This document shows, piece by piece, positions 16,722 to 58,470 of a DNA stretch of 64,000 nucleotides. The notes under the pieces are model-generated. The model did no database searches. It saw only the letters and a list, made by a program, of their open reading frames with translations, and was not told the DNA's origin. The stretch is from Prostheceraeus crozeri (Eukaryota; Platyhelminthes; Polycladida; Euryleptidae). Location of the stretch: positions 806,001 through 870,000 of the forward strand of contig CAJQUW010007059.1 of the NCBI GenBank assembly GCA_907163375.1, given 5' to 3'. The position numbers and the translations under genes were made by a program. Positions within the stretch are counted from its first letter, which is position 1. Each line of letters starts with the position of its first letter.

Positions 16722-17913
16722 AGTAGTAAGCAAGTGACAAACACTCGACCGGCGCCCCCCCCCTCTGGAACGGCAGAGTGTCGTGGTCGGCCGCCGTGGT
16801 GCTTCGGGTCTGAGTCCCCCCCCCCCTGTGGAACGACAGAGTCTGTCGTGGTGTGCCGGCCAGGTGGGTTCACAACATGTTCGCTGACTCCCCCCCCCCT
16901 CTGCAACGACAGAGTGTGAGACTCGGATGTGTTGGTCTCGTATGGGTTGACGTGACCGACCGCCTAGGTTGACGTGGGCGACCGCCTAGGTTGACGTGGG
17001 CGACCGTCTAGGTTGACGTGGGCGACCGTCTAGGTTGTCGTGGATGGTGAAATGGCTGCCAGATTCGGATTCAGCGTAAAATTCTGCATCGGTAGGGTGA
17101 GTTTCAAGGCAATTGGCGAGAAAAAATTTTTCTTCAAAATTTTAACAGAGTTAGAATTTGGGACGTTTTGGTGTGTAGCGCCCGAACGAAGCATCGGATG
17201 AGAAAACGGAGGCCAGATTCGGAATCTACGTGAAATTTTGGGTTAGGAAGGATGTTTCCAGCGAAATCGGAGAGAAAAAATTTTCGGCTGACGTCCCCCC
17301 CCCCTCTGGACAGCTTGCTTCGATTTTGGCTTCCAGTGGACGGATTTTGTCGTGCGATAGCTCGTTTGAAAGCTAAGAGTGAGACAAATTCAGTGAAAGA
17401 ATCGGCTTGTTCCTATCTGTCTTCGTTTAGATGTGAGACGCCATTTAAGATTTTGGGACATTGGTGAAAAACGACAGAGTTAGAATTTGGGACGTTTTGG
17501 GCTGTAGCTTCAAAACGAAGCATCGGATTGGAAAACGGATTTCAGATTTGGAATCAGCGTGAAATTCTTTATCTGTATAGTGAGTTTCAAGTCAATCGGA
17601 GAGAAAAAATTTTCAACATTTTTCGAAAAAACGACAGAGTTAGAATTTGGGATGTTTTGGTGTGTAGCGCCCAAACGAAGCATCGGATGAGAAAACGGAG
17701 GCCAGATTCGGAATCTACGTGAAATTTTGGGTTAGGAAGGATGTTTCCAGCGAAATCGGAGAGAAAAAATTTTCGGCTGACGTCCCCCCCCCCTCTGGAC
17801 AGCTTGCTTCGATTTTGGCTTCCAGTGGACGGATTTTGTCGTGCGATAGCTCGTTTGAAAGCTAAGAGTGAGACAAATTCAGTGAAACAATCGGCTTGTT
17901 CCTATCTGTCTTC
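16722..17913. repeat. Left terminal inverted repeat of Polinton A
   Basis: Matches 38199-39389 in reverse complement apart from homopolymer lengths. It holds three C-tract blocks followed by CTCTGGAACGGCAGAG-like inverted motifs (16755, 16816, 16890), a GC-rich tandem array and nearly two copies of a 489-bp unit. The small ORFs inside are repeat artefacts. Confidence 0.92.
16946..17040. repeat. 22-bp GC-rich tandem repeats in the TIR
   Basis: About four and a half units of GGTTGACGTGGGCGACCG plus CTA or TCTA, mirrored at about 39062-39170. Position close to the terminus suggests a binding or replication role, which is inference. Confidence 0.75.
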
Positions 17914-18040
17914 GTTTAGATGTGAGACGCCATTTAAGATTTTGGGACATTGGCGAAAAACGACAGAGTTAGAATTTGGGACGTTTTGGGCTCTAGCTTC
18001 AAAACGAAGCATCGGATTGGAAAACAGAGACCAGATTTGG
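17252..18040. repeat. 489-bp direct repeat within the left TIR
   Basis: The sequence from 17252 (GGATGTTTCCAGCG) recurs at 17741 and stays similar to about 18040. The second copy extends past the TIR boundary at 17913. The right TIR carries the same pair. Confidence 0.8.
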
Positions 18041-18060
18041 AATCAGCTTGATGTTATTGT

Positions 18061-18108
18061 CCAATGAGGATCATCATCCAATGAGAATCAAGCATTTCTT
18101 TATAAATA
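18061..18108 (+). promoter_or_regulatory. CCAAT boxes and TATA box of the rightward cluster
   Basis: CCAAT occurs at 18061-18065 and 18078-18082, followed 19 bp later by TATAAATA at 18101-18108. Transcription would start around 18130, giving a leader exon that ends at the ATG at 18207-18209. The mirror-image gene for PolB has the same CCAAT-to-TATA spacing at 34580-34533. Confidence 0.7.
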
Positions 18109-18206
18109 GCGAGCCTTCCACAGTGAGAATCATTCCATCGTTGAATCACACGAGTGACGGACGCACATTTTCTCTCTCTAGTTCCCTGTTCTATTACCCA
18201 ACTAAA

Positions 18207-18982
18207 ATGGTAAGTCGCTACTTCCCTCCCTCTCCTCCCTTGAACGTAAACTTAATACAATCTTTTTTCATTTTCAGGCATCTACTCCATCTGCTGCACT
18301 AGTAGGACAAAATGGCGGTCAAACGTTACAAGGTTCGCTACGGTCAGATCATCTACAACTGAGGCCAGTGGAAGAAACATCCAAGGTACATAATCCTACA
18401 CCGCTACAGCGTAAATTTAAACAAGCCTTGCGTTATGATGATCATAGCGTAGTACTCCAAACGGGAATGCTCCCTTCCACGGATGTCAAGATAATGCACA
18501 ATCAGTATGGGGACTACATACTGATCCCCGTGAGTACGTACATTCGCCACCAACTTGATATTATTGAGGAGTACGTGACATTAAATATGGACATTCCTAC
18601 TCCTCTTGCTCAAGAGTGGAAGGCGAGAGATGACAAGGATACTCCCTATAGAAAGATTTGGGATGGTAATCACATTTGCCTACCGGTATCACATTGGTGT
18701 ACTTACTATAAGAAGGATGGAGATCATTCAATACCCATCAGATGTGATGAGCTCGGAGAAGGTACTTGGGATATCCTTTTTAAAGTGAATGGGCTATATT
18801 ATGGTCGACACAAGGATAATAAAATAGCCTCTCTCTCCATGCATATGGAATCCATTTTATATATTCCGAAACCACCCAACGTGGACGACATAATTGATCA
18901 AATCCTTAACAGCAGTGGTACGAAGCGCAAGTCGGAGAAGAATGCTACATCAAAACGCAAATCAAAGAAGGAGAATTACTAG
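18207..18982 (+). CDS. Spliced unknown protein, first gene of the cluster
   Basis: The ATG at 18207-18209 is the last codon of exon 1. An intron with GTAAGT (18210) and a T-rich tract ending TTTTCAG (18277) is 68 nt long, and exon 2 begins GCATCT at 18278, in frame with the long ORF. The product is 235 residues and starts MASTPS. The middle is rich in Tyr, Trp, His and Asp. The C-terminus is a Lys/Arg/Ser-rich tail resembling a nuclear localisation signal. I do not recognise the fold. Without splicing, the ORF has no upstream ATG in frame and would have to start at a GTG near 18368, which supports the intron. It is the most promoter-proximal gene, so it may act early. Confidence 0.75.
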
Positions 18983-19016: not shown

Positions 19017-19142
19017 ATGTGCTTTGAGTGTCGTAGACGTGGTCTTATTAGATACATTTTACTTCTTCGTTGCCATCATATCATTTGTGTATTTTGTCGT
19101 GAAAAGCATCGATGTAATTCTTCATTTTGTAATATGTTATAG
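19017..19142 (+). CDS. Mini RING-type zinc-finger protein
   Basis: A 41-residue ORF starts at ATG 19017 and is almost entirely a Cys/His module: CFEC, a 12-residue spacer, CHHIIC, VFC, then C-x4-C. The spacing C-x2-C...C-x-H-x2-C-x2-C...C-x4-C approximates a RING finger, the zinc-binding fold of many E3 ubiquitin ligases. The frame is open upstream to 18894 but overlaps the previous gene there, so the internal ATG is preferred. It lies between the spliced gene and the exonuclease-like gene, with a second RING-like gene 1.1 kb downstream. It could instead be an exon of a larger spliced product. Function is inferred from pattern only. Confidence 0.45.
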   Translation: MCFECRRRGLIRYILLLRCHHIICVFCREKHRCNSSFCNML

Positions 19143-19194
19143 AACGCTTCCTTAGATGTGTAAATTTCCGTTTTAGGCTTCTATCATCATTTTT

Positions 19195-20225: not shown

Positions 20226-20549
20226 ATGCAGTGGTACTTGATTGTAGCACAACTGGTTTTCGAGCTATGTCTGCTCACTCTCGAAGTATATTCCTTCTGT
20301 ACATGCGTCTATTATTTAGAAAAGGCTAGCAAATTCATATCTTCAAAAAGACTTGCTATAGACATCAGTAACGGTGAAACTATGTGTTGCGATGTATGTA
20401 AGCGAAAGGATGGAAATGAAAAGCGCATCTTCAAGAGATGTAAGCATGCTTTTTGTCAACGCTGTTTCATACGTAATTGCATTCAACTTTGCCAATGTAA
20501 CCACTGTGACATTGCTCATTTCGATTGTCACTTATGTCGCAATAGTTAG
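20226..20549 (+). CDS. Membrane-anchored RING-finger-like protein
   Basis: The 107-residue protein starts at ATG 20226, two bases after the previous stop. Residues about 4-32 are strongly hydrophobic, consistent with a signal anchor. The C-terminal half is Cys-rich: CDVC, 13 residues, CKHAFCQRC, then CQCNHC and CHLC. The order C-x2-C, C-x-H-x2-C-x2-C, C-x2-C matches a RING-HC finger with an extra Cys pair. RING proteins usually recruit E2 enzymes to ubiquitinate targets. A membrane-tethered viral RING could modify host surface or trafficking proteins, by analogy to other large DNA viruses. That function is inference; the zinc-finger pattern is seen. Confidence 0.55.
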   Translation: MQWYLIVAQLVFELCLLTLEVYSFCTCVYYLEKASKFISSKRLAIDISNGETMCCDVCKRKDGNEKRIFKRCKHAFCQRCFIRNCIQLCQCNHCDIAHFDCHLCRNS

Positions 20550-20600
20550 TACCTATGCAAATGTGGTAAAGATAGGTTTTAGCAAAGACTAACACGGAAA

Positions 20601-20957: not shown

Positions 20958-20988
20958 TTATGCAAATGTTGAGTCTCAAAGTAATAAA

Positions 20989-21606
20989 ATGGATTTCAGA
21001 CTTCAATGTGATAAAGTTCTGACTGTATCAGGTCCATCTCATGCAGGTAAAACTGTTTTCACGCTGAATTTATTGGATAAAAGAAGGGAGTTGTTTAAGG
21101 AACCTATCAATCGAGTGATTTGGTGTTATGGTATTTATCAACCGTCGCTGTTTCAGGAATTGCAAAGTCGCAACTTTATTCGACATGAAGGAATTATTCC
21201 AGTGGATAAACTTCAGTCTAATGATGTTGTTGTATTGGATGATTTATTAAAAGAAAGTAAGAATTCAAAAGATGTTACAGATATGTTCACTCGCGCAGCA
21301 CACCATAAAGGGTGTTTTATCATCTATATTACACAAAATTTGTTTCCTGATGGAAAAGAAGCTCGTACACGAAACCTGAATACACACTATTATGCTATTT
21401 TCAAGAATCCGCGAGATAAAAGTCAATTTGAAATTTTAGCGCGACAAGTTGCACCCAGAGGATCAAAAGCCTTAATTGAAATTTTTCAAGCAGCTACTGA
21501 AAAACCATACGGTTACTTATTCATTGACTTTACGCAAGAGTGTCCGGAAGAATTTAGATTTCGAAGTGATATTTTGAAAACTCCCATGATTATCTACAAA
21601 CTATGA
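20989..21606 (+). CDS. FtsK/HerA-type genome-packaging ATPase
   Basis: From ATG 20989 the protein has 205 residues. Walker A is GPSHAGKT (residues 15-22), and Walker B is VVVLDD (80-85) followed by LLKES. A third motif, YITQNLF, corresponds to the sensor region of A32-like packaging ATPases. The product would pump genomic DNA into capsids. An upstream in-frame ATG at 20941 would add 16 residues but overlaps the preceding gene. The later start begins immediately before the conserved first strand and is preferred. The stop overlaps the next start (ATGA at 21603). No motif is damaged. Confidence 0.9.
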   Translation: MDFRLQCDKVLTVSGPSHAGKTVFTLNLLDKRRELFKEPINRVIWCYGIYQPSLFQELQSRNFIRHEGIIPVDKLQSNDVVVLDDLLKESKNSKDVTDMFTRAAHHKGCFIIYITQNLFPDGKEARTRNLNTHYYAIFKNPRDKSQFEILARQVAPRGSKALIEIFQAATEKPYGYLFIDFTQECPEEFRFRSDILKTPMIIYKL

Positions 21607-22296: not shown

Positions 22297-22512
22297 ATGA
22301 AGCAGATGTGTTGCTTGCCATGTAATGAGCCGCCAGAGGTGAATGTCGTTGTCACTTGCACTTGCTGCGCCAGCTCTCATAATGAAACCCCTAAGCAATG
22401 TGAACACGATCGCAAAACCGCTAAAGCTAAATGCTGCAGTTGTTGTAAATGTAGAAAGGCAAGAAAGAAAAAAGATGAGAAGGAGGAAAAAGAGTCAGCC
22501 GTCATCGACTGA
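22297..22512 (+). CDS. Small Cys-rich ORF overlapping the integrase region
   Basis: The 71-residue ORF has 15 Cys in its first 50 residues (for example CCLPC, CTCC, CCSCCKC), then a Lys/Glu-rich tail. The Cys pairs look zinc- or metal-binding, but fit no finger I recognise. It starts 2 nt after the previous stop. It overlaps, in another frame, the region 22343-22512 that is also open in the integrase frame. If the integrase starts at 22475 the overlap is only 38 nt. The density of paired cysteines argues for a real protein, but composition alone is weak evidence. Confidence 0.4.
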   Translation: MKQMCCLPCNEPPEVNVVVTCTCCASSHNETPKQCEHDRKTAKAKCCSCCKCRKARKKKDEKEEKESAVID

Positions 22513-23563
22513 ACGTTTGAAGTCAATCTATTATGATGTAAAACATCCGGCAGGATTTGCATCTATCAAGAAATTATCAAAAGCGAGTGGTCTTCCACAA
22601 TCACAAGTGAAACGATGGTTAAAGGGTCAGGCTACCTATACACTTCACAAACAAGCGAAAAAGAAGTACCGCACCCGCCATTATATTGTTCATGACATCG
22701 ATGAACAGTGGCAAGCAGATTTGTGCGATGTTGCCTCCATTTCAAAACATAACTCGGGCAATAATTTTATTTTAACCGTCATTGATATTTTCTCGCGTTA
22801 TGCGTGGGCTCAACCTTTAAAAACTAAAGAAGGGAAAGGAGTAGCAAAAGCATTCCAAACAATTTTTCGAGAAGGTCGCATTCCAAAAAGAATTCAGAGT
22901 GATCAAGGAAAAGAGTTTGAAAATCAGCATGTGACAAGATTATTTGAGAGGCATGACATTGAGTTGTTTAGTGTAAAGAGCGCTTATAAAGCTGCACTCG
23001 TTGAACGTTTTAATCGCACATTAAAAAATCGCTTGTGGCGACATTTTACTGCCAACTTGACACAAAATTGGACAAAGGTTCTACAAGATACACTCCATGC
23101 CTACAATCACTCTATCCATCGTTCTATTGGACTCAGACCAGTAGATGTAAATGCTGACAATGTAGATAAAGTGCGCGAATCATTCCAACGTAAACGCACT
23201 CGTGTGAAAAGTGATGTGAAAATTGGCGATAAAGTTCGTATCTCAAAAGTGAAAAGTGTTTTTGCTAAAGGGTACCTTCCGAATTGGACAGAGGAGGTAT
23301 TTACAGTATCAAGGATTAATCAAAAAGACTCTCCGACCACCTACAAGTTGAAAGATTACGATAATGAAGAAATTGAGGGTAGCTTTTACCGCGATGAGAT
23401 TGAGGTAGTCACTGAAAGTGAAACATATTTGGTAGAGAAAATCATTCGATGTAAAAAACGGCAAGGTGAAGAATGGTGTCTTGTTAAATGGGCTGGTTAT
23501 CCTTCAAGTATGAACTCTTGGATGCGTCGTGCCGACATCTTTCATCTAAGTGATCGACAGTGA
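22475..23563 (+). CDS. Polinton integrase (RVE family) with chromodomain
   Basis: Numbering from the first in-frame ATG at 22343: a helix-turn-helix-like region (KKLSKASGLPQSQVKRWL, about 76-93) and a Tyr-Thr-Leu-His segment, then the catalytic core with Asp126 (WQADLCD), Asp187 (QSDQGKEF) and Glu221 (ALVERFNRTLK). This is the DDE triad that inserts the element and makes 6-bp duplications. A C-terminal SH3-like segment is followed by a chromodomain (YLVEKIIR...WCLVKWAGYPSSMNSW, 362-393), which may steer insertion to modified histones. The ATG at 22475 (Met45) lies just before the conserved start. The first 44 codons look like a shadow of the Cys-rich frame. All catalytic residues are present. 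Confidence 0.92.
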   Translation: MRRRKKSQPSSTERLKSIYYDVKHPAGFASIKKLSKASGLPQSQVKRWLKGQATYTLHKQAKKKYRTRHYIVHDIDEQWQADLCDVASISKHNSGNNFILTVIDIFSRYAWAQPLKTKEGKGVAKAFQTIFREGRIPKRIQSDQGKEFENQHVTRLFERHDIELFSVKSAYKAALVERFNRTLKNRLWRHFTANLTQNWTKVLQDTLHAYNHSIHRSIGLRPVDVNADNVDKVRESFQRKRTRVKSDVKIGDKVRISKVKSVFAKGYLPNWTEEVFTVSRINQKDSPTTYKLKDYDNEEIEGSFYRDEIEVVTESETYLVEKIIRCKKRQGEEWCLVKWAGYPSSMNSWMRRADIFHLSDRQ

Positions 23564-23604
23564 TTCATGCAAAGTTGTAACTAACAATGTTTAGGGTTTG
23601 AGCT

Positions 23605-24062: not shown

Positions 24063-25340
24063 ATGGAGTGTAAAACTTCCGGTTTTTGTTTGTTCGATCA
24101 ACAAGCCATACAGACAGATATTCTTAGTTCAAGTATTGTAGATTATCATCCTCGAACAGCTGAGAATGCTGGCCCCATTGAATTTGTTATTCCTGGTGGT
24201 AGTGATGACTACATAGATTTGAGTTATGCGATGCTTGATTTGAGGTTTAGAATTCAGCAAGCAGATGGAACTGCTATTGACGATGCACATAAAGTTGGAC
24301 TGAACAATTTACCATTGACTACATTACTTCGTGATGTTTCTCTAACGATTGGAGAGCAGCAAGTGGAAGGTGGTCAAAGCGATTATCCCTATAAATCATA
24401 TTTCAATCATGTATCACAGTTTCATCCAGCAGCACAAAAAAGTCATATGGAAGCCATGGGATGGTACAGAGATGAAGCAGGAAAATTTGATGTTGAAACA
24501 AACAGTGGCTTTGTAAAGCGATCTGCTATGATTAAAGATAGTAGAGTATGTCAGCTATATGGTCCGCTGAATTTAGACTTCTTTAGACAGTCAAAGTTTT
24601 TACTGTGTAATACCAGCATGCGACTCAAGCTGACATTGAATAAGCCTGAATTTGCGCTGAATGCATTTGCTAAAGTTGACAATTTTAGAATTCATGTGGA
24701 AGATATTGCACTTTACATTCGTCGAGTAGTACCGAATCCAAGTGTCATTAGAGGGCATGCTGAAGGCCTTAACCGCCAAAATGCCATTTACCCCATTCAG
24801 CATACAAAGCTTCTCACCTTTACAATTCCGAAAGATCAAAAGAGTTTCATGAAAGTTGGCCTCTTTCCATCGGAAGCACCGAAGCTCCTCATGGTGGCAA
24901 TGGTTGAAAATGATGCATTTAATGGTAATATAAAGAAGAATCCTTTCAATTTTAAACACAATCAGTTAAGTGAAATTGCTTTACGTGTAAATGGTGTGAG
25001 TCATCCTGGTCCACCCTACAAACCAGATTTTGCTTCAGATCAATTTATGCGCAGTTATGTTGATTTTATGGATGTTTTTGGCTTTTACAATACGGATGAC
25101 ACCAACGGACTGACTATGAAAGAGTTTAAGAGTGGATATACTATTTATGCATTTGATTTAACTGCTGACAGCGATATTAGTGCACCCTATCGTCAAGCGA
25201 ACGTGCCTCATAATATTCGTTTGGATTTGACGTTCAAAAGAACACTACCTGAGACGATCAATGTATTAATTTATGCAGTCTTCGATTCAAATATTGAAAT
25301 TACAAAGTATCGTGACGTGATTCTTCAGTATAATCGTTAA
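24063..25340 (+). CDS. Major capsid protein (hexon-like, double jelly-roll family)
   Basis: The 425-residue protein contains the conserved early block PIEFVIPGGSDDYIDL and a following LTTLLRDVSLTIGEQQVEGG, characteristic of the capsid family widely annotated in invertebrate Polintons. It also has a late IRLDLTFKR and NVLIYAVFD pair. The family is taken as the double jelly-roll capsid protein of Polintons. Position between core-like protein and protease supports this. Length is within the family's usual 400-650. The frame is intact. The stop overlaps the protease start (TAATG at 25338). Confidence 0.85.
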   Translation: MECKTSGFCLFDQQAIQTDILSSSIVDYHPRTAENAGPIEFVIPGGSDDYIDLSYAMLDLRFRIQQADGTAIDDAHKVGLNNLPLTTLLRDVSLTIGEQQVEGGQSDYPYKSYFNHVSQFHPAAQKSHMEAMGWYRDEAGKFDVETNSGFVKRSAMIKDSRVCQLYGPLNLDFFRQSKFLLCNTSMRLKLTLNKPEFALNAFAKVDNFRIHVEDIALYIRRVVPNPSVIRGHAEGLNRQNAIYPIQHTKLLTFTIPKDQKSFMKVGLFPSEAPKLLMVAMVENDAFNGNIKKNPFNFKHNQLSEIALRVNGVSHPGPPYKPDFASDQFMRSYVDFMDVFGFYNTDDTNGLTMKEFKSGYTIYAFDLTADSDISAPYRQANVPHNIRLDLTFKRTLPETINVLIYAVFDSNIEITKYRDVILQYNR

Positions 25341-25801
25341 TGAGTTGGTTGACTGCTGACGATATTAAGACTAAAGTGCAGCGTAATGCAGACGAAGCGA
25401 CGTTGAAAGCTTTCGATAATGTCTATTCACTCGATACCTTACCACCTGCAGTAAATCACTATCCCATCTTTATTGTGCTAAACACTCATTCACAGAATTT
25501 AGGCGGTGAGCATTGGAAAGCGATCTTTATTGGAGAAGACCGACGTGGTGAACTATTTGACTCTCTTGCTCAACCTCCAAATATACCAACACAGCAGTGG
25601 TTGAGAAAACATACGCGTCAATATCAGCGAAATGAACGCATACTACAACATCCACTTTCATCAACGTGTGGTGCTTTTGTACTGTACTTCATCTTAAAAC
25701 GTTTACATGTATCTCGATTTGCATCTATTATTCAAAACTTTTCATGTAATCCATCCTCTAATGAAAAAATGATTTGTAAGTTCTATCATGATTTGAAATA
25801 A
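25340..25801 (+). CDS. Adenain/Ulp1-like maturation protease
   Basis: This 153-residue cysteine protease has His58 in GGEHWKAIF, Asp74 in ELFDSL, Gln103 in ILQHP and Cys110 in STCGAFVLYFI. The order His-Asp-Gln-Cys is that of the adenovirus protease / Ulp1 clan. It would cleave virion precursors, possibly at the Gly-Gly sites in the proteins at 20601 and 23605. Its start overlaps the capsid stop. Its TAA stop at 25799 lies within a poly(A) signal (AATAAA 25797-25802), so it is the last gene of this rightward cluster. Confidence 0.9.
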   Translation: MSWLTADDIKTKVQRNADEATLKAFDNVYSLDTLPPAVNHYPIFIVLNTHSQNLGGEHWKAIFIGEDRRGELFDSLAQPPNIPTQQWLRKHTRQYQRNERILQHPLSSTCGAFVLYFILKRLHVSRFASIIQNFSCNPSSNEKMICKFYHDLK

Positions 25802-25828: not shown

Positions 25829-26374
25829 TTATTTTACAATCCGCTGGGTACGTACATACTCAATGAGATAGTCTAGGATCATATTTGCTTGTTCATGAGA
25901 TTTTAGTCCAGTAATGATCACTTTACTATTATGAAAGATTGCCACATGCACAGGCAACCAACAACTAATGAGAGCTGCAGGAAAAAGTTCGGGTTCATAA
26001 CACAAACTGTAACTGCTGGTACGAATCTTCAAAAATGATAGACTGTCACTCAATTGAGTAGAGATCACCATATTGTCCACAGTCAGATTCGACATCACAC
26101 ACCTCTCCCTCTTCCATATCCGACGTAGTAGTCTTTGTAGCTCTAAGCGCATTGACTGCGCCGATGAATGAGAAAGGGCGCCGAGAATCTGTACAGTCCC
26201 ATTTGGGAAGAGTTGAAGATTCCGTGAATTGTTCATCTTCACCACTAACATTTGAGGACGGCCCGGGTAATACTTGCTGTTTGGAAGCTGTTGGCGTAAT
26301 GTTGTGAGATCGATTTTGGTGTAGAGTCTGAAGCGACGGAGAATGTTGACGATGGTGTAGCGATGGCGCTTCAT
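25829..26374 (-). CDS. TATA-binding-protein-like two-repeat protein
   Basis: The 181-residue protein from ATG 26374 consists of two similar halves. Repeat 1 (about 6-85) has TIVN near its start and LQLFPNGTVQILGA in the stirrup position. Repeat 2 (95-175) has LTVDNMVIS, SYSLCYEPELFPAALI and FHNSKVIITGLKS. YEPELFP followed by the F-x-S/N-K-V-x-x-TG-x-K pattern is the TBP signature, and both halves carry it as in the TBP saddle. Cellular TBP nucleates RNA polymerase II complexes on TATA boxes. This copy suggests the element directs its own transcription, and its promoters have clear TATA boxes. The frame is open upstream to 26518 but there overlaps the neighbouring gene. The stop codon sits inside a poly(A) signal (complement of 25828-25833). 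TBP is not a standard Polinton gene to my knowledge. Confidence 0.75.
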   Translation of the reverse strand: MKRHRYTIVNILRRFRLYTKIDLTTLRQQLPNSKYYPGRPQMLVVKMNNSRNLQLFPNGTVQILGALSHSSAQSMRLELQRLLRRIWKRERCVMSNLTVDNMVISTQLSDSLSFLKIRTSSYSLCYEPELFPAALISCWLPVHVAIFHNSKVIITGLKSHEQANMILDYLIEYVRTQRIVK

Positions 26375-26696
26375 GATGAAAGAATGAGTAAATTGAGCGA
26401 TGTACCTTCCTTTTATACTTTTCCCAACTACCTTGATGAAATGTGAAGTTAGTATGAAGTTGGGAATGATAGAGTTGAATTCGCCGATTGTTGACGCGCA
26501 GCCAGATGCGATTTCCAATACGTGAATGTCTTTTCATATAGAAGTATTTCAAGTCCTTCATGATATGATGTAGAGATTGAAAATGACGATAAGATAAAGC
26601 AAACTCTCTTCTCACATTTCCAGTTGAATCTTTGAAATAGACGTTTCGATCATGATCCGTTTCAATACGTTGTAGGGAATCTAATTTCCAACTCAT
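26046..26696 (-). CDS. Small-domain protein, paralogue 1, with disordered tail
   Basis: This 216-residue ORF has an N-terminal 105 residues that align with the next gene upstream: WKLDSLQRIETD, a DRNVYFKD strand, LSYRHFQSLHHIM, GNRIWLR and QGSWEKYKRKVHRSIYSF. The order (short beta strands, then L-x-x-x-x-F-x-x-L-x-x-IM helix) is reminiscent of the PC4/p15 single-stranded-DNA-binding fold, but this is weak. Residues 110-216 are low-complexity, rich in Ser, His, Gln and acidic residues. They overlap the TBP-like gene in another frame from 26374 down to 26046, so the tail may be real dual coding or a partial shadow. The Met at 26696 is a good start. Confidence 0.6.
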   Translation of the reverse strand: MSWKLDSLQRIETDHDRNVYFKDSTGNVRREFALSYRHFQSLHHIMKDLKYFYMKRHSRIGNRIWLRVNNRRIQLYHSQLHTNFTFHQGSWEKYKRKVHRSIYSFFHHEAPSLHHRQHSPSLQTLHQNRSHNITPTASKQQVLPGPSSNVSGEDEQFTESSTLPKWDCTDSRRPFSFIGAVNALRATKTTTSDMEEGEVCDVESDCGQYGDLYSIE

Positions 26697-26718: not shown

Positions 26719-27075
26719 TTAAGATTTGCATAGTAGGGCGATGAACTCACGACGAATAAATGTCATGATGGAGCGATGTATGTATCTTCTATACTTCTCC
26801 CAATTGTATTTGCGAAATGAGAAACAGTTTGCGGAATGAGAATGGTAGATTTGAATTTCATTTCTGTAATGTTGAAGCCAAACTTGATCACCCAAGGAGA
26901 TGAATCTTAATGTTTCAAAATATTCCAAATCCCTCATGATATCATTGAGGTTGACAAATTGTCGCCATGTTAATGTAATACCTCTTGATGTATGACCATG
27001 AGAATTTTTGAAATGTACGTTTCCATCACGATCAACTCTGATATATTGTAGAGAGTCCAAAATCCAAGTCTTCAT
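26719..27075 (-). CDS. Small-domain protein, paralogue 2
   Basis: The 118-residue protein from ATG 27075 is a tandem-duplicate relative of the gene just downstream: WILDSLQYIRVDRDGNV, FKNSHGHTSRGITL, WRQFVNLNDIMRDLEYFE, SLGDQVWLQHY, NWEKYRRYIHRSIMTF. Its fold may be PC4-like (RGITL followed by an aromatic helix), which in cells is a transcription coactivator binding single-stranded DNA. That assignment is tentative. Conservation of the same residues in two diverged copies shows that the domain is under selection. It is divergent from the gene at 27111 with only 35 nt between start codons. Confidence 0.65.
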   Translation of the reverse strand: MKTWILDSLQYIRVDRDGNVHFKNSHGHTSRGITLTWRQFVNLNDIMRDLEYFETLRFISLGDQVWLQHYRNEIQIYHSHSANCFSFRKYNWEKYRRYIHRSIMTFIRREFIALLCKS

Positions 27076-27110
27076 GATGTTATGCAAAGTTGCAGATTAG
27101 CAATATAAAA

Positions 27111-28508
27111 ATGTCGTTTTATCATATTTTGCTTAGCAATGCGGCTACAAAGAGATTTACTAGTAATCGAGCCGCACTCTTTTCTACTCCCATTGATCAT
27201 GCACAACAGCTAAATGGGAATTGGGAAGTGGGTGTCACTCAACTTGTTTATAGCAACTGTGTCTATACTTTTGATCATGAGGTGATGACTATTAATATGA
27301 GGCGTACAGCTGCTTATCAATGTGAAAAGGGGTGCCGAGTATACATTCCACAGTGGTCAAAGAAAGATCTCTTATCATGTAAAAAGTTTATATATGATTT
27401 CTTGAATAAAGCGTGTAAACATATTGTCCAATTTACTCCGCACAATGATGATTATAATTATGTACATCATGTAGTTGAGAAAGATTGGATTGTTGGTTTA
27501 AGTCCAAGTTTAAGAAATGATTTAGGCTACCTCGCTAGCGCCTTAACAAGCTATGATAATTTTAACGTTAATTACCACATAAGTGGTCATAAACAGTTAA
27601 TATATCGAGAGGAAGCTTATTATGTAGATCTTATTCCAAGAAATGAGAAGACGTTGGTGAAGAAGATTGTGATTAAGCCAAGAAAGACAAACATGACTCC
27701 TGAAACATTATTGAAGAAATTTAATTATCTCCTTCGAGTTGATGGTAAACAAGTGGCAACATTGACTTATATCAAATCATCTAATCATATTGCAATAAGC
27801 AAATTAAATGATGATGATCTAGTATTAGTTTGTTCAAAAGATTTTCATCAGTTCTTACGACATCGTTCTGCAGCTGTTCATGGAAAATCTGATATGCAAC
27901 ATTTACCATGTGAAAGGCCAAATCAATTTGATACAGAATGGGCCGTATCTTTATACAGAAAGTGTGTAGAGCCTTTTGGTGGTTTCTTACATGAAACAAG
28001 AGTGTTGATGCCTCGCATTATTACTTCGGTTAAATTGGTTGTAGATTATTTAAATGAAGTGATTAATGAGCAACATATTTCATTTTCTGAAAAAGAAGGT
28101 ACTTTGTCTCTCACTATAAGTGGAAAAGGTATTGAACTAATTATGGATAAAACTCTAATGGACATTTTGGGTTTTGACCAAAATATCTTTAAAAGTGGTA
28201 CTGTAACCAAAGCTAGCGCAGACATGTCGCTATCGCGTCGTATTAACTATTTTCAGATATATTCCAATATTGGTGAAGATGTACGTGTGGGAGATGTTGA
28301 AGCTCCATTGCTAGCAATGATACCATACCAGCCAAAGAGCTGCAGTATTTTATCTGAGCATACTTTCAAGAAAGTGCATTATACAAAGCTGAAATCAAAC
28401 TACATCCCACAAATTGATATTGCCATTTATGACGATGCTGGTGCGTTGATTCCTTTTCATAAAGATGCTGTGACAAGTATCACACTCCATTTCCGAATGA
28501 AGAGTTAA
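27111..28508 (+). CDS. Conserved Polinton virion-protein candidate, paralogue 1
   Basis: The 465-residue protein from ATG 27111 opens with ILLSNAATKRFTSNRAALF and LNGNWEVGVTQLVY. It ends with YFQIYSNI, VRVGDVEAPLLAMIP, PQIDIAIYDDAGALIPF and SITLHFRMK. The opening SNA...N...WEVG-x-x-x-x-x-Y and closing VGD...F-x-x-LHFR patterns define a protein found in many Polinton and adintovirus-like elements. It is probably structural (penton/minor capsid or fibre base have been suggested by position), but I cannot assign it. The following gene is a clear paralogue. The frame is intact. Confidence 0.6.
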   Translation: MSFYHILLSNAATKRFTSNRAALFSTPIDHAQQLNGNWEVGVTQLVYSNCVYTFDHEVMTINMRRTAAYQCEKGCRVYIPQWSKKDLLSCKKFIYDFLNKACKHIVQFTPHNDDYNYVHHVVEKDWIVGLSPSLRNDLGYLASALTSYDNFNVNYHISGHKQLIYREEAYYVDLIPRNEKTLVKKIVIKPRKTNMTPETLLKKFNYLLRVDGKQVATLTYIKSSNHIAISKLNDDDLVLVCSKDFHQFLRHRSAAVHGKSDMQHLPCERPNQFDTEWAVSLYRKCVEPFGGFLHETRVLMPRIITSVKLVVDYLNEVINEQHISFSEKEGTLSLTISGKGIELIMDKTLMDILGFDQNIFKSGTVTKASADMSLSRRINYFQIYSNIGEDVRVGDVEAPLLAMIPYQPKSCSILSEHTFKKVHYTKLKSNYIPQIDIAIYDDAGALIPFHKDAVTSITLHFRMKS

Positions 28509-28550
28509 TGCAAACGTATGCTAATATATTTTTCCAATGTGAATAATATG

Positions 28551-30373: not shown

Positions 30374-33300
30374 TTATGCTAAGACGTCTCCTGAATGTGG
30401 TAGTGTGAGTTTAATTCTTTTGGGTGGTGGTATGTTTGTGTCAGGATGTCCATGTGGAAGAGATATGTTGTGTTCTAACCAGCACCTCTTATCCTCCCAT
30501 GCTGAAAGCGCCCGTTTCCTAAAAGTATGAGTTTTGATCTCATGCGACTTAGATTTTAAGATTGTCATATTGACAAACGTTATATTTTTATTTCTATAGG
30601 CTTTCCTGAAATTCTTATGTTTCATATTTTGCACAATGGATTTTGATATGCCTTTAGCGCGCTTAATGCTATCATCACTATCCTTTAATTTCATAGAATA
30701 CATTTTTGGACGGAGGAGAATCATTTCATCTATTTCCTTCCCTGCTGTCTCATCCTTAAAGCAGCCAAGTTTTGCCTTATTTTTGATGGAGTAGAGTGGA
30801 TGATCAGCAGGATAATTTGATGTATCAAAATATCTTTCCAAAGATTTTCCTACTTCATTGAAATTTAAATCTTTTTGAGTGGTAATACCTAAGAAGAAAC
30901 TATCTGTATCACCACCCAACAAACGAACCTCTTTTACGAGAGGACATGGTTTTAGTATTTTATAAAAGAGTTGGTACATTTCAAGCTTAGAATAATCTAG
31001 TACAGCTTGACCAATATAGATGGGTTTGCACAACTCAACTTCAGATTTTATCATTTTAACACCTATAAGGTCCTCATCGATAATGTCTCTATCGATGAAT
31101 AGAGGTGATGAGGTCAATTTGTGATACTTTTGATCATCATTAACTAGTTTGTAGTTTACGCGCTTTCTAACATCCTCCATCGTCTTACCAAATAGACTGT
31201 TGTTCTTATATTTATAAAAATCTTTTTCAAAGTTATTTTGGGCTAGTGCACGTTTCTGGCTGTTGCTATCAATATATGGCTTGAGGAAGGCTTTCTGTCT
31301 AAATTTAATAATGCGGTGAACTCTTTTTAAAATCATACCCATTTCTAAATAAAATTTTAAGATGCTAAAGTGGACTAGATAGTTTTCTTTATCATACTGG
31401 GTGAGTAAAAGTTTGCGACAAGGCTTATAGTCGGGTTGTCCACATGATTCTAAATCTTTATGAAATTGTTTCATAAAGTCGGAAAACATATCTTTACTCA
31501 CTTCACCTGATTCGGGTGCGAGTGGAAAATCTACGGTTTTATGTTTAATATTATTTGGATAGATTAGATCTATCTCAAAATAATATCCCCAATCACCTTC
31601 ATCTGGAATTGCTAGTATGTTAGAAGGGTTGGAGAAATGTTGAATATCACTATCATCTAACCAGCTAAACTCAGAGTGAGGTAGCGGTTTGGATAATGAA
31701 CTACCATACAAATTATTTTGGTCATAATACTTCAGATGAGTCTGGTCATTGCCTACTGTTTCAGATTTTAACCTATGTTTATTTACAAATGTGAGACCAC
31801 CGCGAATTCCTCGCTCAAATAAATTATACATCTCTGGATCTTGTAAGAGATGAATGGTCTCACCAGTCATTTTAAAAGCAGACTTAAATGACATGGCTGG
31901 CAGACTGACAAAGTGGACGGGATCTAACTTATCTTCTTCTAATGCCACTCGTCGAAACTCCTGAAATACATCAGCCAGCAAAAATACATCTAACTTAAGG
32001 TAGGCAATCATATATTCGCCAAATGTATGGCAGTCAAATTTTATCCATGCATCTTGTGCATGATCATAATCTTCGATCTTACATTCTGCGCCGGTCAAAT
32101 CATTTTTAAATTTATCTATGGGCGGAAGAGAAGTCTCGCCGAGTTTACTAATCGCATCAAAATATGCATATGGAAAGACTCCTTTCCGTGTGATGACTTC
32201 ATCGGTTAGATTTGGGTATTGTTTCTTAAGATTTTGTGTTAGTGGAAGAGACTTTAGATTTTGCACGAGAGAGGCCAGTGAAGCAGTCATAAATTGGTAG
32301 GAATCTAAAAATTTTATATCAAAATAGACCGTCTTATTTTCTTTAGTTTTATCGACAGGCACTTTTGCTGTCATGGCCATAAACTTCTCTCTCGTTTGCG
32401 CTATTACATCAAGCTTCCACTCTTTCATTTGACCTAAACCTCCTTTTATTATCATATGGCTGTCGTAGCCCTTGAAATTATGGAAAATGACGGGTAATGT
32501 ACGCCGTTTCATCCTAAGTGAAAAATTGCATTTTGAACAGAGTGCGTTTCTAAATTTAGCAGTGATGTGATCATGGTCGCGCACTTTCTTAATCTTATCA
32601 TCGTCAAATGTTTTCCTACATTTGTGGCAAATGTTGCAACTATCAAATTTTGCTTGATCATCTGCTGTCATATGCAATGATCTGCGATAGAGTTCACCAT
32701 CATGTTTTTGTTGAAATTTTACAGCCTGTTCGAGGAATTGTAGGAATTGGTAAATACAATCCTCACCTTGCCAGACGCGCATTTTATTTTGCCTACCCCT
32801 AAAGTGATCATGCCATACTTCATAGCAGGAAATGGCTGCTGGTCGATGGATGTTATCATCGATATAACATTCGATGTCAGCATAGATGACACGAAGAGGA
32901 CTTAATTCATCACCATTCTCTCTATATGAAAACTCCTTATCTTTGGGCATGCGCTCCATTTGCAGTTTACCTCGCTTACACCATTCGTAATGAGTTTCAA
33001 ATTTAGTTTTCCTCCTAAAGTGGCGAATACATCTGTCGCAGTAATATAACTCTCTACTAGAGTTTTCTAAGTGGTGGTATAAGCGAGAGATTTTGGGAAT
33101 ACCGCAGTAGTGCCATTCCTCACTATCATCCTGTTTTACTAATAACAGGTTTACTGTACGTTCATAACAACTCGAACGCGAGTTGTAGCGCACACCCTTC
33201 AATCCTTTTTCCCAAACATGGAGAACTATTTTGATGTTGTTCAATTTTTCAAATTTTTCTATATCTTTAATTTTCATATCGTCACTATTACAGTCATCGA

Positions 33301-34360
33301 AGTTTAATTCATTCTCCCACTGTTGATACTTACTCTTGCGGTATCGACTATTCTGCACATCATTATAGTGGAGAATGGAGAGGACGGCATACTTAAAACA
33401 TTGCGATTCGCAATCTACAGAAATGACTGCTGCTTTATTTCTTAAATTTTTCGGAAGTTTAAAGGAGCCTCGACCACTATGATTTCCTAATAAACTGATT
33501 TTAATCATGGCGGTCTCAATACCATCAAAAACGAGTCCACTATCACGCTCGTTAAATTTATCTATATTTAATTTTAACCCTTGGATATGAAAATTTATCC
33601 AAGACTCACAGTCTACAACTTCGGTTGCAGGAGAGGAGGGTATGTGAAACTCCAACCTCTCTATTATTTGTCCAGTATGGTGGTCGATTTTTACATATTT
33701 TATTTTAAGATAGATGAGCGCCTTCATCCTAAAATTGTCTAAATTGTTGAAGAGCGCTTCTATCAATGATGAATTTTGATGAAACCATTCCTCAAAGTTA
33801 GCAATGGTTTCTGAGGAGTCCATCTGGTAGTTCCTCACTAAATTATTTATGGACACTTCAGTGAGTCGGATAGAGGAGGTACCGTTGGTGTAGGTATCGT
33901 TCGCGTGTGTATGTTGAAGTCTGTGCGAAGATAGTTCAAAACGTGTCTCGAAAGACTGAGCGCACAAGTCGCAAGAAAAGGAGACATCGTTAACAGAATC
34001 ATCCCTACCTTCGGAGATTGATGCCGGCTTAGGTCGACAAACACCTCGCTTGATGTGTCGGGTGAGATCACGCTTCCTCGTGAAGATGTGTCCACAGTCA
34101 GCACATTGCCGATCGTCGCATTCCCGCGACAATGTTGATATGGACTCGCACGAGATGGAACTGGTATCACCTGAAAGAGAAATCATTCTTTCATCTCTGT
34201 TCAAGTGTCAGTATATTGTTACAACCTACCTTGACTCAACAACTCTAAACTTTCCTCGAGAAGGGAGGGTGTTGGTGATGAAGTTGATGCCTGAAATTGA
34301 GGAAGATGCTATTAGCCACACGTTTGAGGGAGATGAGAGAGGAAATTTTCAACTTACCAT
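30374..34360 (-). CDS. Protein-primed family B DNA polymerase, three exons
   Basis: Exon 1 contributes only the ATG (34358-34360). Intron 34291-34357 starts GTAAGT and ends ATTTCAG. Exon 2 is 34230-34290. Intron 34171-34229 runs from GTAGGT to TTTCTCTTTCAG. Exon 3 is 30374-34170. Joined, this gives 1,286 residues starting MASTSS. Numbering below adds 10 to the exon-3 ORF opened at 34204. Two C2H2 fingers (about 44-66, 88-108) come first, then the module also found at 19813. A Cys279/His375 papain-like segment follows, then a third finger. Exo motifs are ADIEC (453), FHNFKGYDSH (584) and YLKLDVFLLAD (745), with an HNH-like DHDH (553). Polymerase motifs are YYDQNNLYG (836), KNNSLFGKT (1010), GGDTDS (1107) and RPKMY (1175). 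All are intact. It would replicate the linear genome from the TIR ends by protein priming. Confidence 0.95.
34171..34357 (-). other. Two short introns in the PolB 5' end
   Basis: Introns of 67 nt (34357-34291) and 59 nt (34229-34171) remove an in-frame TAA that otherwise closes exon 2 after 24 codons. Phases restore the polymerase frame exactly at a Gly codon. The 68-nt first-gene intron and a 62-nt candidate at 36232 are similar in size, indicating a common short-intron style in the element. Confidence 0.75.
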
Positions 34361-35094: not shown

Positions 35095-35148
35095 TAAATT
35101 TTTATTTCGTATTATCTTTGCTTTCATACTGACGTACTTGAATGGGGC

Positions 35149-35968
35149 TTCAGTGAATAATTTAACCATGTATACTTTTTCATTTGGAAATAGTAGCACG
35201 CTTAGTTTAACTTGCAAATCTTATAACATTTCATATGGACGATGATGATAGTTGAAATAGTGTCAAATAAAATTAAGATAGCTTACACTTCTGATACAGG
35301 GATAGCAATCGACTGCGATCCATGTGTAAAGAGCTTGTTAGACTACGGATGGGGTTAAGTGGATGATTTAACCATGTATACATTTTCATTTGGAAATAGT
35401 AGCACGCTTAGTCTAACTTGTAAATCTTAAAACATTTCATATGGACGATGATGATAGATGAAATAGTGTCAAATAAAATTAAGATAGCTTACACTTCTGA
35501 TACAGGGATAGCAATCGACTGCGATCCATGTGTAAAGAGCTTGTTAGACTACGGATGGGGTTAAGTGGATGATTTAACCATGTATACATTTTCATTTGGA
35601 AATAGTAGCACGCTTAGTCTAACTTGTAAATCTTAAAACATTTCATATGGACGATGATGATAGATGAAATAGTGTCAAATAAAATTAAGATAGCTTACAC
35701 TTCTGATACAGGGATAGCAATCGACTGCGATCCATGTGTAAAGAGCTTGTTAGACTACGGATGGGGTTAAGTGGATGATTTAACCATGTATACATTTTCA
35801 TTTGGAAATAGTAGCACGCTTAGTCTAACTTGTAAATCTTAAAACATTTCATATGGACGATGATGATAGATGAAATAGTATCAAATAAAATTAAGATAGC
35901 TTACACTTCTGATACAGGGATAGCAATCGACTGCGATCCATGTGTAAAGAGCTTGTTAGACTACGGAA
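35149..35968. repeat. Four 206-bp tandem repeats
   Basis: Units start at about 35149, 35355, 35561 and 35767. Each contains GGATGATTTAACCATG, TAGTAGCACGCTTAG and GGGATAGCAATCGACTGCG. The last three are nearly identical and the first is slightly diverged. No ORF runs through a whole unit. Loosely related tandem repeats occur in the matching position of the relic Polinton arm (56020-56236). A replication or regulatory role is possible. Confidence 0.85.
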
Positions 35969-36153
35969 GAGAGAAGTGTGTTATGTTGCGTGTGGCGCGT
36001 GAGTGTCCTCCCATTTCATTCCATTCATTATTTTTCTTCCCCTCTGCATTCCATATCCGAGGATATGTGGCGGGCTTGGGACCGCTTTAGCTGCATTAGA
36101 AGGTTGGCCCTTAAAAGAGCCCATGGGTCGTTCTCCGTCCACCGACACTCCTC

Positions 36154-37350: not shown

Positions 37351-38198
37351 TACTACTTGCTGATATGTATTGAAAGACTAAGTCACCAAACATTTGATAG
37401 CAAGTCAGCAACCGTTTGGGTGTTAAGCTCTTGAATCCGTTACAGGCATTACTCAGAGGGGATCTTATCCCAGCTCCAAGGCCTCGACCCACAAATCCAA
37501 CCTCGATCGGACAGAGCGTGCGTCATATCACTGTGTTGGTATCCGGGCCCCAGTTTTGACATGAAAACCGGTGGAGTTATTTACAAGAGGAAACGACCCA
37601 AGTCACAGAGACTCATAAACGACTGCTTTTTATTCAAAAACTTTAATTATTATCATTAAATATGAATTTAAATTTTTCAGTATTTTAGTACTACTCATAA
37701 AACGTTTATAAGTAGTCTGTCACCTTCAGCATAGCAAACGCTGTCGAATGTTTTTTGAATCAAGTCTAAAGGACTTGTAGAAGCAAAGTTATAGCCGTTT
37801 GAAGATTTCGGCCTACTATCATCAAATGGTCAGTCATGCTATACTGACTAACCTATAAGTCTGACACCTTAGCTGATATCAGCAATGTAAAGTCAGAAGT
37901 CCGATATCGGACCTCAAGAGAAACGACTTACCTGTAGTCAGTTTCTCAACTTAGTGAAATTCCTCTCCCGATCCCGTTCTTATATACCCTGTGAATATGC
38001 AATCGATAAGAGGGGGGGGGGGACGTCAGTGAAATTTCAAAATTTGATGAAAAATGTTTTGGTGACGGTCCCAGGTCGAAATTCCACACTTTGGAAAATT
38101 TTCAAATTTTTACCCATACAAAGCCACTCTGACACTTAGGATTTTTTCAGGTGAGCGAGCTCCGACCTAAAATCTTGTAACCGCTCTAACTTTTGAAT
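37351..38198. other. Non-coding spacer between the last gene and the right TIR
   Basis: No gene seen. The segments 37640-37720 and 37850-37930 (for example GCTGATATCAGCAATG) match, inverted, the relic Polinton arm near 54940-55140, so this spacer is conserved between family members. Confidence 0.6.
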
Positions 38199-39389
38199 GA
38201 AGACAGATAGGAACAAGGCGATTGTTTCACTGAATTTGTCTCACTCTTAGCTTTCAAACGAGCTATCGCACGACAAAATCCGTCCACTGGAAGCCAAAAT
38301 CGAAGCAAGCTGTCCAGAGGGGGGGGGGGACGTCAGCCGAAAATTTTTTCTCTCCGATTTCGCTGGAAACATCCTTCCTAACCCAAAATTTCACGTAGAT
38401 TCCGAATCTGGCCTCCGTTTTCTCATCCGATGCTTCGTTTGGGCGCTACACACCAAAACATCCCAAATTCTAACTCTGTCGTTTTTTCGAAAAATGTTGA
38501 AAATTTTTTCTCTCCGATTGACTTGAAACTCACTATACAGATAAAGAATTTCACGCTGATTCCAAATCTGAAATCCGTTTTCCAATCCGATGCTTCGTTT
38601 TGAAGCTACAGCCCAAAACGTCCCAAATTCTAACTCTGTCGTTTTTCACCAATGTCCCAAAATCTTAAATGGCGTCTCACATCTAAACGAAGACAGATAG
38701 GAACAAGCCGATTCTTTCACTGAATTTGTCTCACTCTTAGCTTTCAAACGAGCTATCGCACGACAAAATCCGTCCACTGGAAGCCAAAATCGAAGCAAGC
38801 TGTCCAGAGGGGGGGGGGACGTCAGCCGAAAATTTTTTCTCTCCGATTTCGCTGGAAACATCCTTCCTAACCCAAAATTTCACGTAGATTCCGAATCTGG
38901 CCTCCGTTTTCTCATCCGATGCTTCGTTCGGGCGCTACACACCAAAACGTCCCAAATTCTAACTCTGTTAAAATTTTGAAGAAAAATTTTTTCTCGCCAA
39001 TTGCCTTGAAACTCACCCTACCGATGCAGAATTTTACGCTGAATCCGAATCTGGCAGCTATTTCACCATCCACGACAACCTAGACGGTCGCCCACGTCAA
39101 CCTAGACGGTCGCCCACGTCAACCTAGGCGGTCGGCCACGTCAACCTAGGCGGTCGGTCACGTCAACCCATACGAGACCAACACATCCGAGTCTCACACT
39201 CTGTCGTTGCAGAGGGGGGGGGAGTCAGCGAACATGTTGTGAACCCACCTGGCCGGCACACCACGACAGACTCTGTCGTTCCACAGGGGGGGGGGACTCA
39301 GACCCGAAGCACCACGGCGGCCGACCACGACACTCTGCCGTTCCAGAGGGGGGGGGCGCCGGTCGAGTGTTTGTCACTTGCTTACTACT
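38199..39389. repeat. Right terminal inverted repeat of Polinton A
   Basis: Reverse complement of 16722-17913. It diverges from the left copy inside GAAGACAGATAGG at 38199. It contains the same G tracts, the ~22-bp array (39062-39170) and both 489-bp copies. Confidence 0.92.
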
Positions 39390-57168: not shown

Positions 57169-57454
57169 TTAAAAATGGAAGATGTAAAAACAAAAGAACC
57201 ATCAGCCCCTTTATATCGGATATTGGAACAAATGAACAATTCCTGTTGTTGCTACTGCTCTGTGAAAGAATGAGATTTTAGTTGTACGTTAGGCAAGTTG
57301 TTTTAATTCTTGCCAGCGCACTCACATGACGACAAAACAATTGCAAACTGTCATCAGGTTGAAGATCGTTATGGCAATGGTGGCAAAGTTGCTACTAAAA
57401 GTTCATTTCTCTCTCTCGTCTGTCATTGTATCGTGTGCTCCGCTGTGATCAGTC

Positions 57455-58392: not shown

Positions 58393-58470
58393 TTCCCGAA
58401 ACGTTAGTTCCAATAATAATGATAATTAAAAATCAAGCGAAGCTAGCTAGCTAAAGCGCCACCTAAAGGT

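What the first reader, a model, noticed from the sequence alone, without database searches (positions are those of the whole stretch)
25829..26374. A Polinton-encoded TATA-binding-protein-like factor
The minus-strand ORF has two TBP-like repeats, including YEPELFP and F-x-N-S-K-V-I-I-T-G in repeat 2 and FPNGTVQILGA in repeat 1. TBP is not part of the usual Polinton gene set known to me. With TATA boxes on the element's outer genes, it suggests the element brings its own initiation factor, as some large nuclear/cytoplasmic DNA viruses do.
Basis: partly seen in the sequence, partly recalled or inferred. Interest (0 to 1): 0.92.

Follow-up and report, generated by a model that had tools for sequence, protein, structure and literature searches.

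The report
Virus-like transposon encodes TATA-binding protein
A virus-like transposon (Polinton) present in many copies in a eukaryotic genome carries its own TATA-binding protein, the factor that normally starts gene transcription, together with two different kinds of promoter signal, which suggests that it steers the host's RNA polymerase to its own genes.

The parts
25829..26374 (-). TBP gene, 181 aa, two TBP lobes (about residues 5-90 and 93-176)
26385..26417 (-). TATA-Inr core promoter of the TBP gene: TATAAAA starts 43 nt and the TCATTC A+1 lies 11 nt before the ATG
   Evidence: same positions in 42 of 44 loci each; TATA-Inr spacing 32 also in lineage 3
16722..18058 (+). left terminal inverted repeat region (100% arms 16722-16825, 16817-16898, 16891-17793, further repeat to 18058)
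38166..39389 (-). right terminal inverted repeat region
18101..18136 (+). TATA-Inr promoter of gene 1 (TATAAATA, TCATTC, spacing 31)
   Evidence: TATA kept in 3 of 3 and the Inr in 2 of 3 diverged copies aligned over the site; two further hits were partial
20989..21606 (+). packaging-ATPase-like gene (weak A32 match on the longer ORF, E 0.052; assignment partly by position)
22343..23563 (+). retroviral-type integrase with chromodomain
   Evidence: rve 1.4e-10, Chromo 1.3e-06
24063..25340 (+). MCP-like gene; assigned by size and position, no Pfam, NCBIfam or PDB match
   Evidence: 268 relatives; no match
25340..25801 (+). cysteine protease (C48/adenain-like)
   Evidence: Peptidase_C48 E 0.0013, just under the gathering score
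26719..27075 (-). PUR/Whirly-fold protein, paralogue 1, upstream of TBP
26403..26696 (-). PUR/Whirly-fold paralogue 2 (conserved part, end approximate, of ORF 26046-26696, whose tail overlaps TBP out of frame)
30374..34186 (-). family B DNA polymerase-like protein with C2H2 fingers and an endonuclease VII match; DTDS and other PolB motifs read by eye
20555..20561 (+). ATGCAAA box 46 nt before ORF 20601
   Evidence: 3 of 3 diverged copies
20960..20966 (+). ATGCAAA box 29 nt before the ATPase-like ORF
   Evidence: 3 of 3
23567..23573 (+). ATGCAAA box 38 nt before ORF 23605
   Evidence: 4 of 4
26725..26731 (-). ATGCAAA box 35 nt before PUR paralogue 2
   Evidence: 3 of 4
27082..27088 (+). ATGCAAA box 29 nt before ORF 27111
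   Evidence: 1 of 3, a fourth hit was partial
28508..28514 (+). ATGCAAA box 10 nt before the first ATG (40 nt before the second, at 28548) of ORF 28518
   Evidence: 3 of 3

Best explanation
This is a TATA-binding protein that belongs to the Polinton itself. SHOWN: the fold (predicted with high confidence), its place in the element, conservation with synteny in a diverged Polinton, purifying selection, retained TFIIB-contact glutamates, TATA and Inr sequences at fixed spacing before its own gene, and a different recurrent upstream box before several other genes. INFERRED: host Pol II first transcribes the early genes (gene 1 and TBP) from canonical TATA-Inr promoters; the element TBP then binds element promoters and, through its intact C-terminal stirrup, recruits host TFIIB and Pol II. 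The most likely special target is the box A[T/A]GCAA(A), mostly 29-46 nt before start codons; the N-lobe Phe-to-Pro change would fit an altered DNA preference. Confidence in a TBP acting on element promoters with host TFIIB/Pol II is about 0.7; in the late-box step alone about 0.35.
For: TBP identity and fold. TFIIB-contact glutamates E127 in 60 of 61 (one Asp) and E129 in 61 of 61; Phe F56 61/61, F147 61/61, F131 60/61; first N-lobe Phe replaced by Pro in 57 of the 58 rows with a residue there. No TFIIB or RNA polymerase domain among the 19 element ORFs scanned. Synteny ATPase, ORF 21603, INT, ORF 23605, MCP, PRO, TBP(-), PUR(-), ORF 27111, ORF 28518 in a lineage with 54% MCP and 42% TBP identity. 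dN/dS 0.22-0.31 against four diverged copies. TBP promoter: TATAAA at 43 nt and Inr at 11 nt before the ATG in 42 of 44 loci each, with 19 distinct upstream sequences. Box: ATGCAAA before 6 of 19 ORFs; 0 of 1000 random ATG sets reach this for ATGCAAA, 6 of 1000 for any 7-mer; intact in 17 of 20 orthologous sites of diverged copies; AAGCAA before 7 of 12 genes of lineage 3 against 4 of 417 control ATGs, 0 of 2000 permutations. Precedent: KSHV ORF24 reads a TATTWAA late motif (PMC12529657, passages).
Against: No transcript, binding or TSS data. Family 2 elements keep an open TBP although no capsid or integrase gene was found in the two examined; in the one tested gene by gene the box precedes only 1 of 9 starts, so TBP must have some other use there. 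In the window 13 of 19 ORFs lack ATGCAAA within 80 nt, MCP, PRO and INT among them. The best 6-mer and 8-mer are not striking (random-window sets as good in 45 and 62 of 1000). The four diverged copies behind the 17 of 20 are related to one another, so they are not independent. The lineage-3 box was named after looking at the same upstream set, and three of its seven sites (before ORF 21603, ORF 23605 and MCP) fall inside the preceding coding sequence. TATA+Inr pairs alone are weakly enriched (3 against 0.69 expected; 15 of 300 shuffles as high; the third pair lies inside the MCP ORF). TBP and box are linked by association only.
Confidence: 0.65

Rival explanations
1. General booster: the element TBP simply acts on ordinary TATA boxes (gene 1, its own gene, perhaps others), making transcription independent of limiting or regulated host TBP; the A[T/A]GCAA box is read by another factor (for example a POU-type octamer factor, ATGCAAAT, or an element protein such as the PUR-fold pair).
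For: TATA-Inr is strictly kept on the TBP gene itself and on two gene 1 homologues in family 2; family 2 keeps TBP with almost no box; three of the four intercalating-type Phe are kept.
Against: Lineage 3 has AAGCAA, not the octamer (0 of 12 ATGCAAA), at a similar distance, and the window boxes continue with G, C or T after ATGCAAA, which fits a POU octamer poorly; the fixed N-lobe Pro suggests altered DNA reading.
Confidence: 0.25
2. Host interference: the element TBP sequesters TFIIB or occupies host TATA boxes to shut down or reprogramme host transcription, rather than serving element promoters.
For: The TFIIB surface is intact while the N-lobe sequence is strongly diverged from cellular TBP.
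Against: The DNA-contacting Phe are kept but for one; the gene sits in an element with conserved TATA-Inr and a second recurrent upstream box.
Confidence: 0.08
3. Recent host gene capture or pseudogene without a role in the element.
For: None found; but the host TBP could not be obtained for comparison.
Against: Family split from 6 reference TBPs by a 100/100 branch, 1.84+1.43 changes per site; dN/dS 0.22-0.31; same position in a lineage with 54% MCP identity; 150 of 150 scored copies identical and open.
Confidence: 0.02

Closest known systems
Cellular TBP (Pfam PF00352; archaeal and eukaryotic)
   Same: Two-lobe saddle, 3 of 4 intercalating-type Phe, TFIIB stirrup YEPELFP
   Different: About 20-27% identity in the structural alignments; first N-lobe Phe replaced by Pro; far below the NCBIfam cut-offs of cellular TBPs (70 against 181 bits at best)
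TBPs of giant viruses, algal viruses and mirusviruses
   Same: Virus-encoded TBP fold (BFVD matches include giant-virus TBPs; mirusvirus TBP, PMC10132985, passages; the algal virus CpV-BQ1 encodes TBP and two TFIIB thought to act on host Pol II, PMC12085832, passages)
   Different: Viral TBPs are described as diverged at the TFIIB-contact sites, several with a viral TFIIB (PMC7221094, passages); here both glutamates are kept and no TFIIB was found; the carrier is a 22.7-kb Polinton. The contrast is not absolute: L001 and L002 also keep acidic residues there
KSHV ORF24, a herpesvirus TBP mimic for late promoters
   Same: Works-like precedent: viral TBP-type factor, short late motif other than TATA, host Pol II (PMC12529657, passages)
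   Different: Not compared by sequence here; ORF24 is one of six viral factors; here the target box is inferred
Polintons/Mavericks and adintoviruses
   Same: INT with chromodomain and TIRs; PolB-like, protease-like, ATPase-like and MCP-like genes
   Different: TATA and TBP have 0 occurrences in the main texts of PMC8097293, PMC11071308 and PMC11071296

Membership tests
TBP superfamily | Match above the curated Pfam cut-off | tested here: met
   72.8 bits against 22.9
TBP superfamily | Two pseudo-symmetric lobes forming a saddle | tested here: met
   [not shown]
TBP superfamily | Four DNA-intercalating Phe (recalled feature) | tested here: not met
   Three of four; the first N-lobe Phe is Pro in 57 of 58 rows. 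PMC7221094 notes a changed N-lobe position in TBPL1 too, so this counts against 'ordinary TATA reader' rather than against the superfamily
TBP superfamily | C-terminal stirrup glutamates that contact TFIIB | tested here: met
   E127 60/61, E129 61/61; meaning from PMC7221094
TBP superfamily | Binding to TATA DNA and TFIIB | not testable with these tools
   needs protein
Cellular (archaeal) TBP models of NCBIfam | Score above the model cut-off | tested here: not met
   best 70 bits against 181
Giant-virus orthogonal TBP-TFIIB system | Virus-encoded TFIIB or RNA polymerase in the same genome | tested here: not met
   none among the 19 element ORFs scanned with Pfam; some short ORFs were not scanned
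Polinton | Retroviral-type integrase | tested here: met
   rve 1.4e-10 and Chromo 1.3e-06
Polinton | Family B DNA polymerase | tested here: inconclusive
   PolB motifs by eye in P0062, but no Pfam or NCBIfam polymerase hit
Polinton | Terminal inverted repeats | tested here: met
   903-nt arms 100% complementary
Polinton | Double jelly-roll MCP | tested here: inconclusive
   268 relatives, no Pfam, NCBIfam or PDB match; fold not predicted
Polinton | Ulp1/adenain-type protease and A32-type ATPase | tested here: inconclusive
   C48 E 0.0013 just under cut-off; A32 E 0.052

The most novel reading that the evidence does not exclude
A Polinton runs a two-stage transcription programme with its own TBP: early genes, including TBP, fire from canonical TATA-Inr promoters; the element TBP, with a changed N-lobe but an intact TFIIB face, then directs host TFIIB and Pol II to a lineage-specific late box (ATGCAAA in one lineage, AAGCAA in another) that has drifted together with the TBP. 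This would be a minimal, single-protein retargeting of Pol II, simpler than the herpesvirus late system.
Probability: 0.33. Interest if true: 0.92.

Novelty: new variant of a known kind. Interest (0 to 1): 0.8.

Why it matters
It adds a general initiation factor to the gene set of a Polinton lineage, and of a type that keeps the host-TFIIB contact. Such elements stand near the root of some proposals for the origin of large eukaryotic DNA viruses (abstract of PMC10328495, listing), so a TBP here bears on when virus-encoded transcription factors arose. If the late-box model holds, the pair of lineages gives a compact natural system for asking how a TBP changes its DNA target while keeping TFIIB.

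Tried and rejected
Relatives by DNA: P0001, A1, the PolB and the MCP gave no confirmed loci in viral contigs; A1 and the MCP none in genome contigs; P0001, PolB and MCP none in the phage records. Cellular TBPs as query gave two loci in viral contigs, L001 and L002, used as references. PHROGs: no family for P0001.

Contig-length matching, to show that the 60 homologues come from Polintons: by eye only P0002 with P0064 (both longest contig 1771) and P0066 with P0069 (11119) match; no TBP contig length recurs among the 120 MCP rows listed of 268. So the genomic context of most of the 60 is unknown.

POU octamer as the sole meaning of the box: weakened by lineage 3 (AAGCAA). ATGCAAA as a universal box: rejected, 0 of 12 genes of lineage 3.

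Host TBP: the query for it did not complete, so the host copy is missing from the tree. The host is unidentified.

Coordinates: the start of gene 1 was entered as 18208 in my scripts; the ATG is 18207-18209. In one search the lineage-3 TBP start was entered three bases early (it printed AGA), and one of the nine family 2 starts (g19813b) is approximate.

Full report

ELEMENT. TIR arms of 903 nt, 100% complementary, and flanking shorter arms bound an element of about 22.7 kb, 16722-39389. It holds an integrase with chromodomain, a protease-like and an ATPase-like gene, a polymerase-like protein with C2H2 fingers and an endonuclease VII match (polymerase motifs by eye) and an MCP-like gene with 268 relatives. 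The MCP, ATPase and PolB assignments rest partly on position and recalled motifs. TBP lies antisense between the protease and two small paralogues of PUR/Whirly-type fold.

SPREAD. The protein collection returned 60 relatives (E <= 0.01, 99 candidates), 31-78% identical over the alignment, all with Pfam TBP and none named; their genomic context is mostly unknown. The host genome (2.05 Gb) gave 150 scored copies, 150 of 150 identical and open (scoring stops at 150 and takes the best, so this is a lower bound and not a random sample). Queries with more distant members gave 150 scored matches each. Of the 24 loci fetched (compared), 12 are window-type (81-98% TBP identity) and 12 a second family (39-47%).

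SECOND FAMILY. On contig C4368 an element with its own, partly rearranged TIRs (about 113.3-132.5 kb) has PolB (58-64%), TBP (43%), a PUR-like ORF and homologues of gene 1, ORF 19195, ORF 19813 and ORF 36111. No MCP (15-sequence profile) and no INT, ATPase, protease, ORF 20601, 21603, 23605, 27111 or 28518 (phmmer, E 0.1) was found on C4368 99.1-137.7 kb or on 19.1 kb of a second copy, C6370, whose ends I did not map. The PolB of the C4368 copy is broken by a frame break.

THIRD LINEAGE. L060 (C12605) has ATPase 66%, INT 65%, MCP 54%, PRO 42% and TBP 42% identity, in the same order and orientation as the window, with ORF 20601 doubled. So TBP is a stable part of a Polinton lineage. Only 8.9 kb of it was read.

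SELECTION AND TREE. dN/dS of TBP between the window and four diverged copies (85-88% DNA over the compared stretch) is 0.31, 0.23, 0.22, 0.23; against two young copies 0.67 and 0.50; the four diverged copies are closer to one another than to the window, so these are not independent. Among 10 open family 2 copies pN/pS is 0.54 with few changes (2 of 12 left out for stops). The 49 family rows with both ends present separate from 6 reference TBPs (4 cellular, 2 from viral contigs) with support 100/100; 12 of the 61 rows were left out as incomplete, and the M. jannaschii row is flagged as long and of odd composition. The host TBP is missing, so the origin of the gene is open; a recent host capture is unlikely.

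RESIDUES. Over 61 rows: F56 61, F147 61, F131 60, E129 61, E127 60 plus one Asp; P40 in 57 of 58 rows with a residue, where cellular TBPs have the first N-lobe Phe (yeast numbering and the roles of the four Phe recalled). [quoted passage not shown] This family differs from that description; so, at these two sites, do the two TBPs on viral contigs L001 and L002 (YEAD, YEDE). Family 2 (12 of 12 copies) and lineage 3 keep E-x-E-x-FPA.

PROMOTERS, CLASS 1. TATA and Inr (TCAKTY) at 31-32 nt spacing precede gene 1 and TBP. By itself the pair is weakly enriched (3 in the interior, shuffles 0.69, 15 of 300 as high; the third pair is inside the MCP ORF). Conservation is the stronger argument: of 44 loci, 42 have TATAAA 43 nt and 42 have the Inr 11 nt before the ATG; TATAAA is lost in L056 and L057, the Inr in L028 and L057, and L028 and L057 also have stops in TBP. 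Lineage 3 has the pair at spacing 32; family 2 has it before TBP and two gene 1 copies, and one further pair without an assigned gene. In the protein collection, 9 of 12 relatives whose ORF was extended by 15 or more residues upstream encode Ile-Lys (ATA-AAR) 13-14 codons before the presumed start, as TATAAA would (read by eye).

PROMOTERS, CLASS 2. ATGCAAA is the commonest 7-mer within 80 nt upstream of the 19 ORFs (6 of 19); of nine copies in the element interior six are so placed. Random windows reach 6 for any 7-mer in 1 of 1000 sets, random interior ATGs in 6 of 1000, and never for ATGCAAA itself; for the best 6-mer and 8-mer the figures are 45 and 62 of 1000. With the span 25-60 nt it is 6 of 19 against 5 of 975 other ATGs. 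It is intact in 17 of 20 orthologous sites in diverged copies (one partial alignment not counted), at ORF 20601 and 23605 with changed neighbouring bases, at ATPase and 28518 with little change around it. Lineage 3 lacks it (0 of 12) but has AAGCAA 25-60 nt before 7 of 12 genes against 4 of 417 other ATGs, 0 of 2000 permutations. This second box was picked after inspecting the same upstream set, and three of the seven sites fall in the preceding coding sequence. Family 2, without capsid genes, has A[AT]GCAA before 1 of 9 starts. In the window the box precedes ORF 20601 and 23605 (basic), the ATPase, the two large ORFs 27111/28518 and a PUR gene; the other 13 ORFs, TBP, PolB, gene 1, MCP, PRO and INT among them, lack it. 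That the box-bearing genes are late is an inference from their likely products.

MECHANISM. I conclude that the element encodes a working TBP used with host TFIIB and Pol II on element promoters. Whether its target is TATA or the A[T/A]GCAA box is open; I favour the box as the special target because it differs between lineages, sits at core-promoter distance and the N-lobe is altered, and because KSHV offers a precedent (PMC12529657, passages). Family 2 is the main difficulty: it keeps TBP with almost no boxes.

LITERATURE. Searches: Polinton + TATA-binding protein (3 papers), Polinton + TBP (2), a six-term search listing 30 of 1429, Polinton + TATA (25), Maverick + TATA-binding protein + transposon (1), adintovirus (29, 20 listed), Polinton gene-content terms (37, 30 listed), viral TBP terms (44, 25 listed). 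I saw passages found by term, not whole texts, in PMC10675990 (sporadic TBPs in elements of putative mirusvirus origin in an alga), PMC12220804, PMC13037468, PMC11464507, PMC12085832, PMC7786948, PMC10132985, PMC11410667, PMC10328495, PMC11071296, PMC11071308, PMC7221094 and PMC12529657, and no occurrence of the terms in PMC8097293. None of these passages reports a TBP in a Polinton; the other listed papers were seen as listings only. The adintovirus paper, the 2024 polinton-supergroup review and the nematode Polinton paper are not held, so prior mention there cannot be excluded.

Noticed in passing
window 18207-18278 and 19175-19177: Gene 1 starts with a mini-exon ending ATG|GTAAGT; acceptors at 18276-18277 and 19175-19176 would both give M-A-S starts, as if one leader exon fed two downstream genes (adenovirus-like leader splicing). 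Read by eye; an AG is also seen at the second acceptor in three diverged copies, followed there by other bases.
   Followed up: partly
[not shown]
   Followed up: partly
window 26046-26374: The TBP gene overlaps the out-of-frame tail of ORF 26046-26696. The window's MCP and PUR1 proteins are listed in the protein collection at 100%, the TBP is not: gene callers may drop it because of this overlap.
   Followed up: partly
window 56263-63665: A second, different and apparently degraded Polinton-like stretch: PLA2-like domain with an rve match in one ORF (58964-59857) and a double jelly-roll domain (61601-62341, PF21738 1.4e-20). No TBP found in it.
   Followed up: no
L042, L043, L047 (C4368 about 113.3-132.5 kb): A TIR-bounded element with PolB and TBP in which no capsid, integrase, protease or ATPase gene was found: perhaps a non-autonomous element that depends on the full Polinton.
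   Followed up: partly
G000: Sign of very recent and large amplification: 150 of 150 scored TBP copies identical in amino acids; 99 of 99 scored MCP matches without stops.
   Followed up: partly
window 19018-19143 and 20226-20549: Two short ORFs with RING-like cysteine/histidine patterns (by eye).
   Followed up: no
protein P0069: An 86% identical MCP carries the NCBI name of a Pseudomonadota MAG protein: probably a Polinton contig binned with a bacterium. Looked for in genome contigs without result.
   Followed up: partly
window 35145-36062: Four tandem copies of a repeat with 206-nt spacing inside the element next to ORF 36111; family 2 keeps part of it.
   Followed up: no
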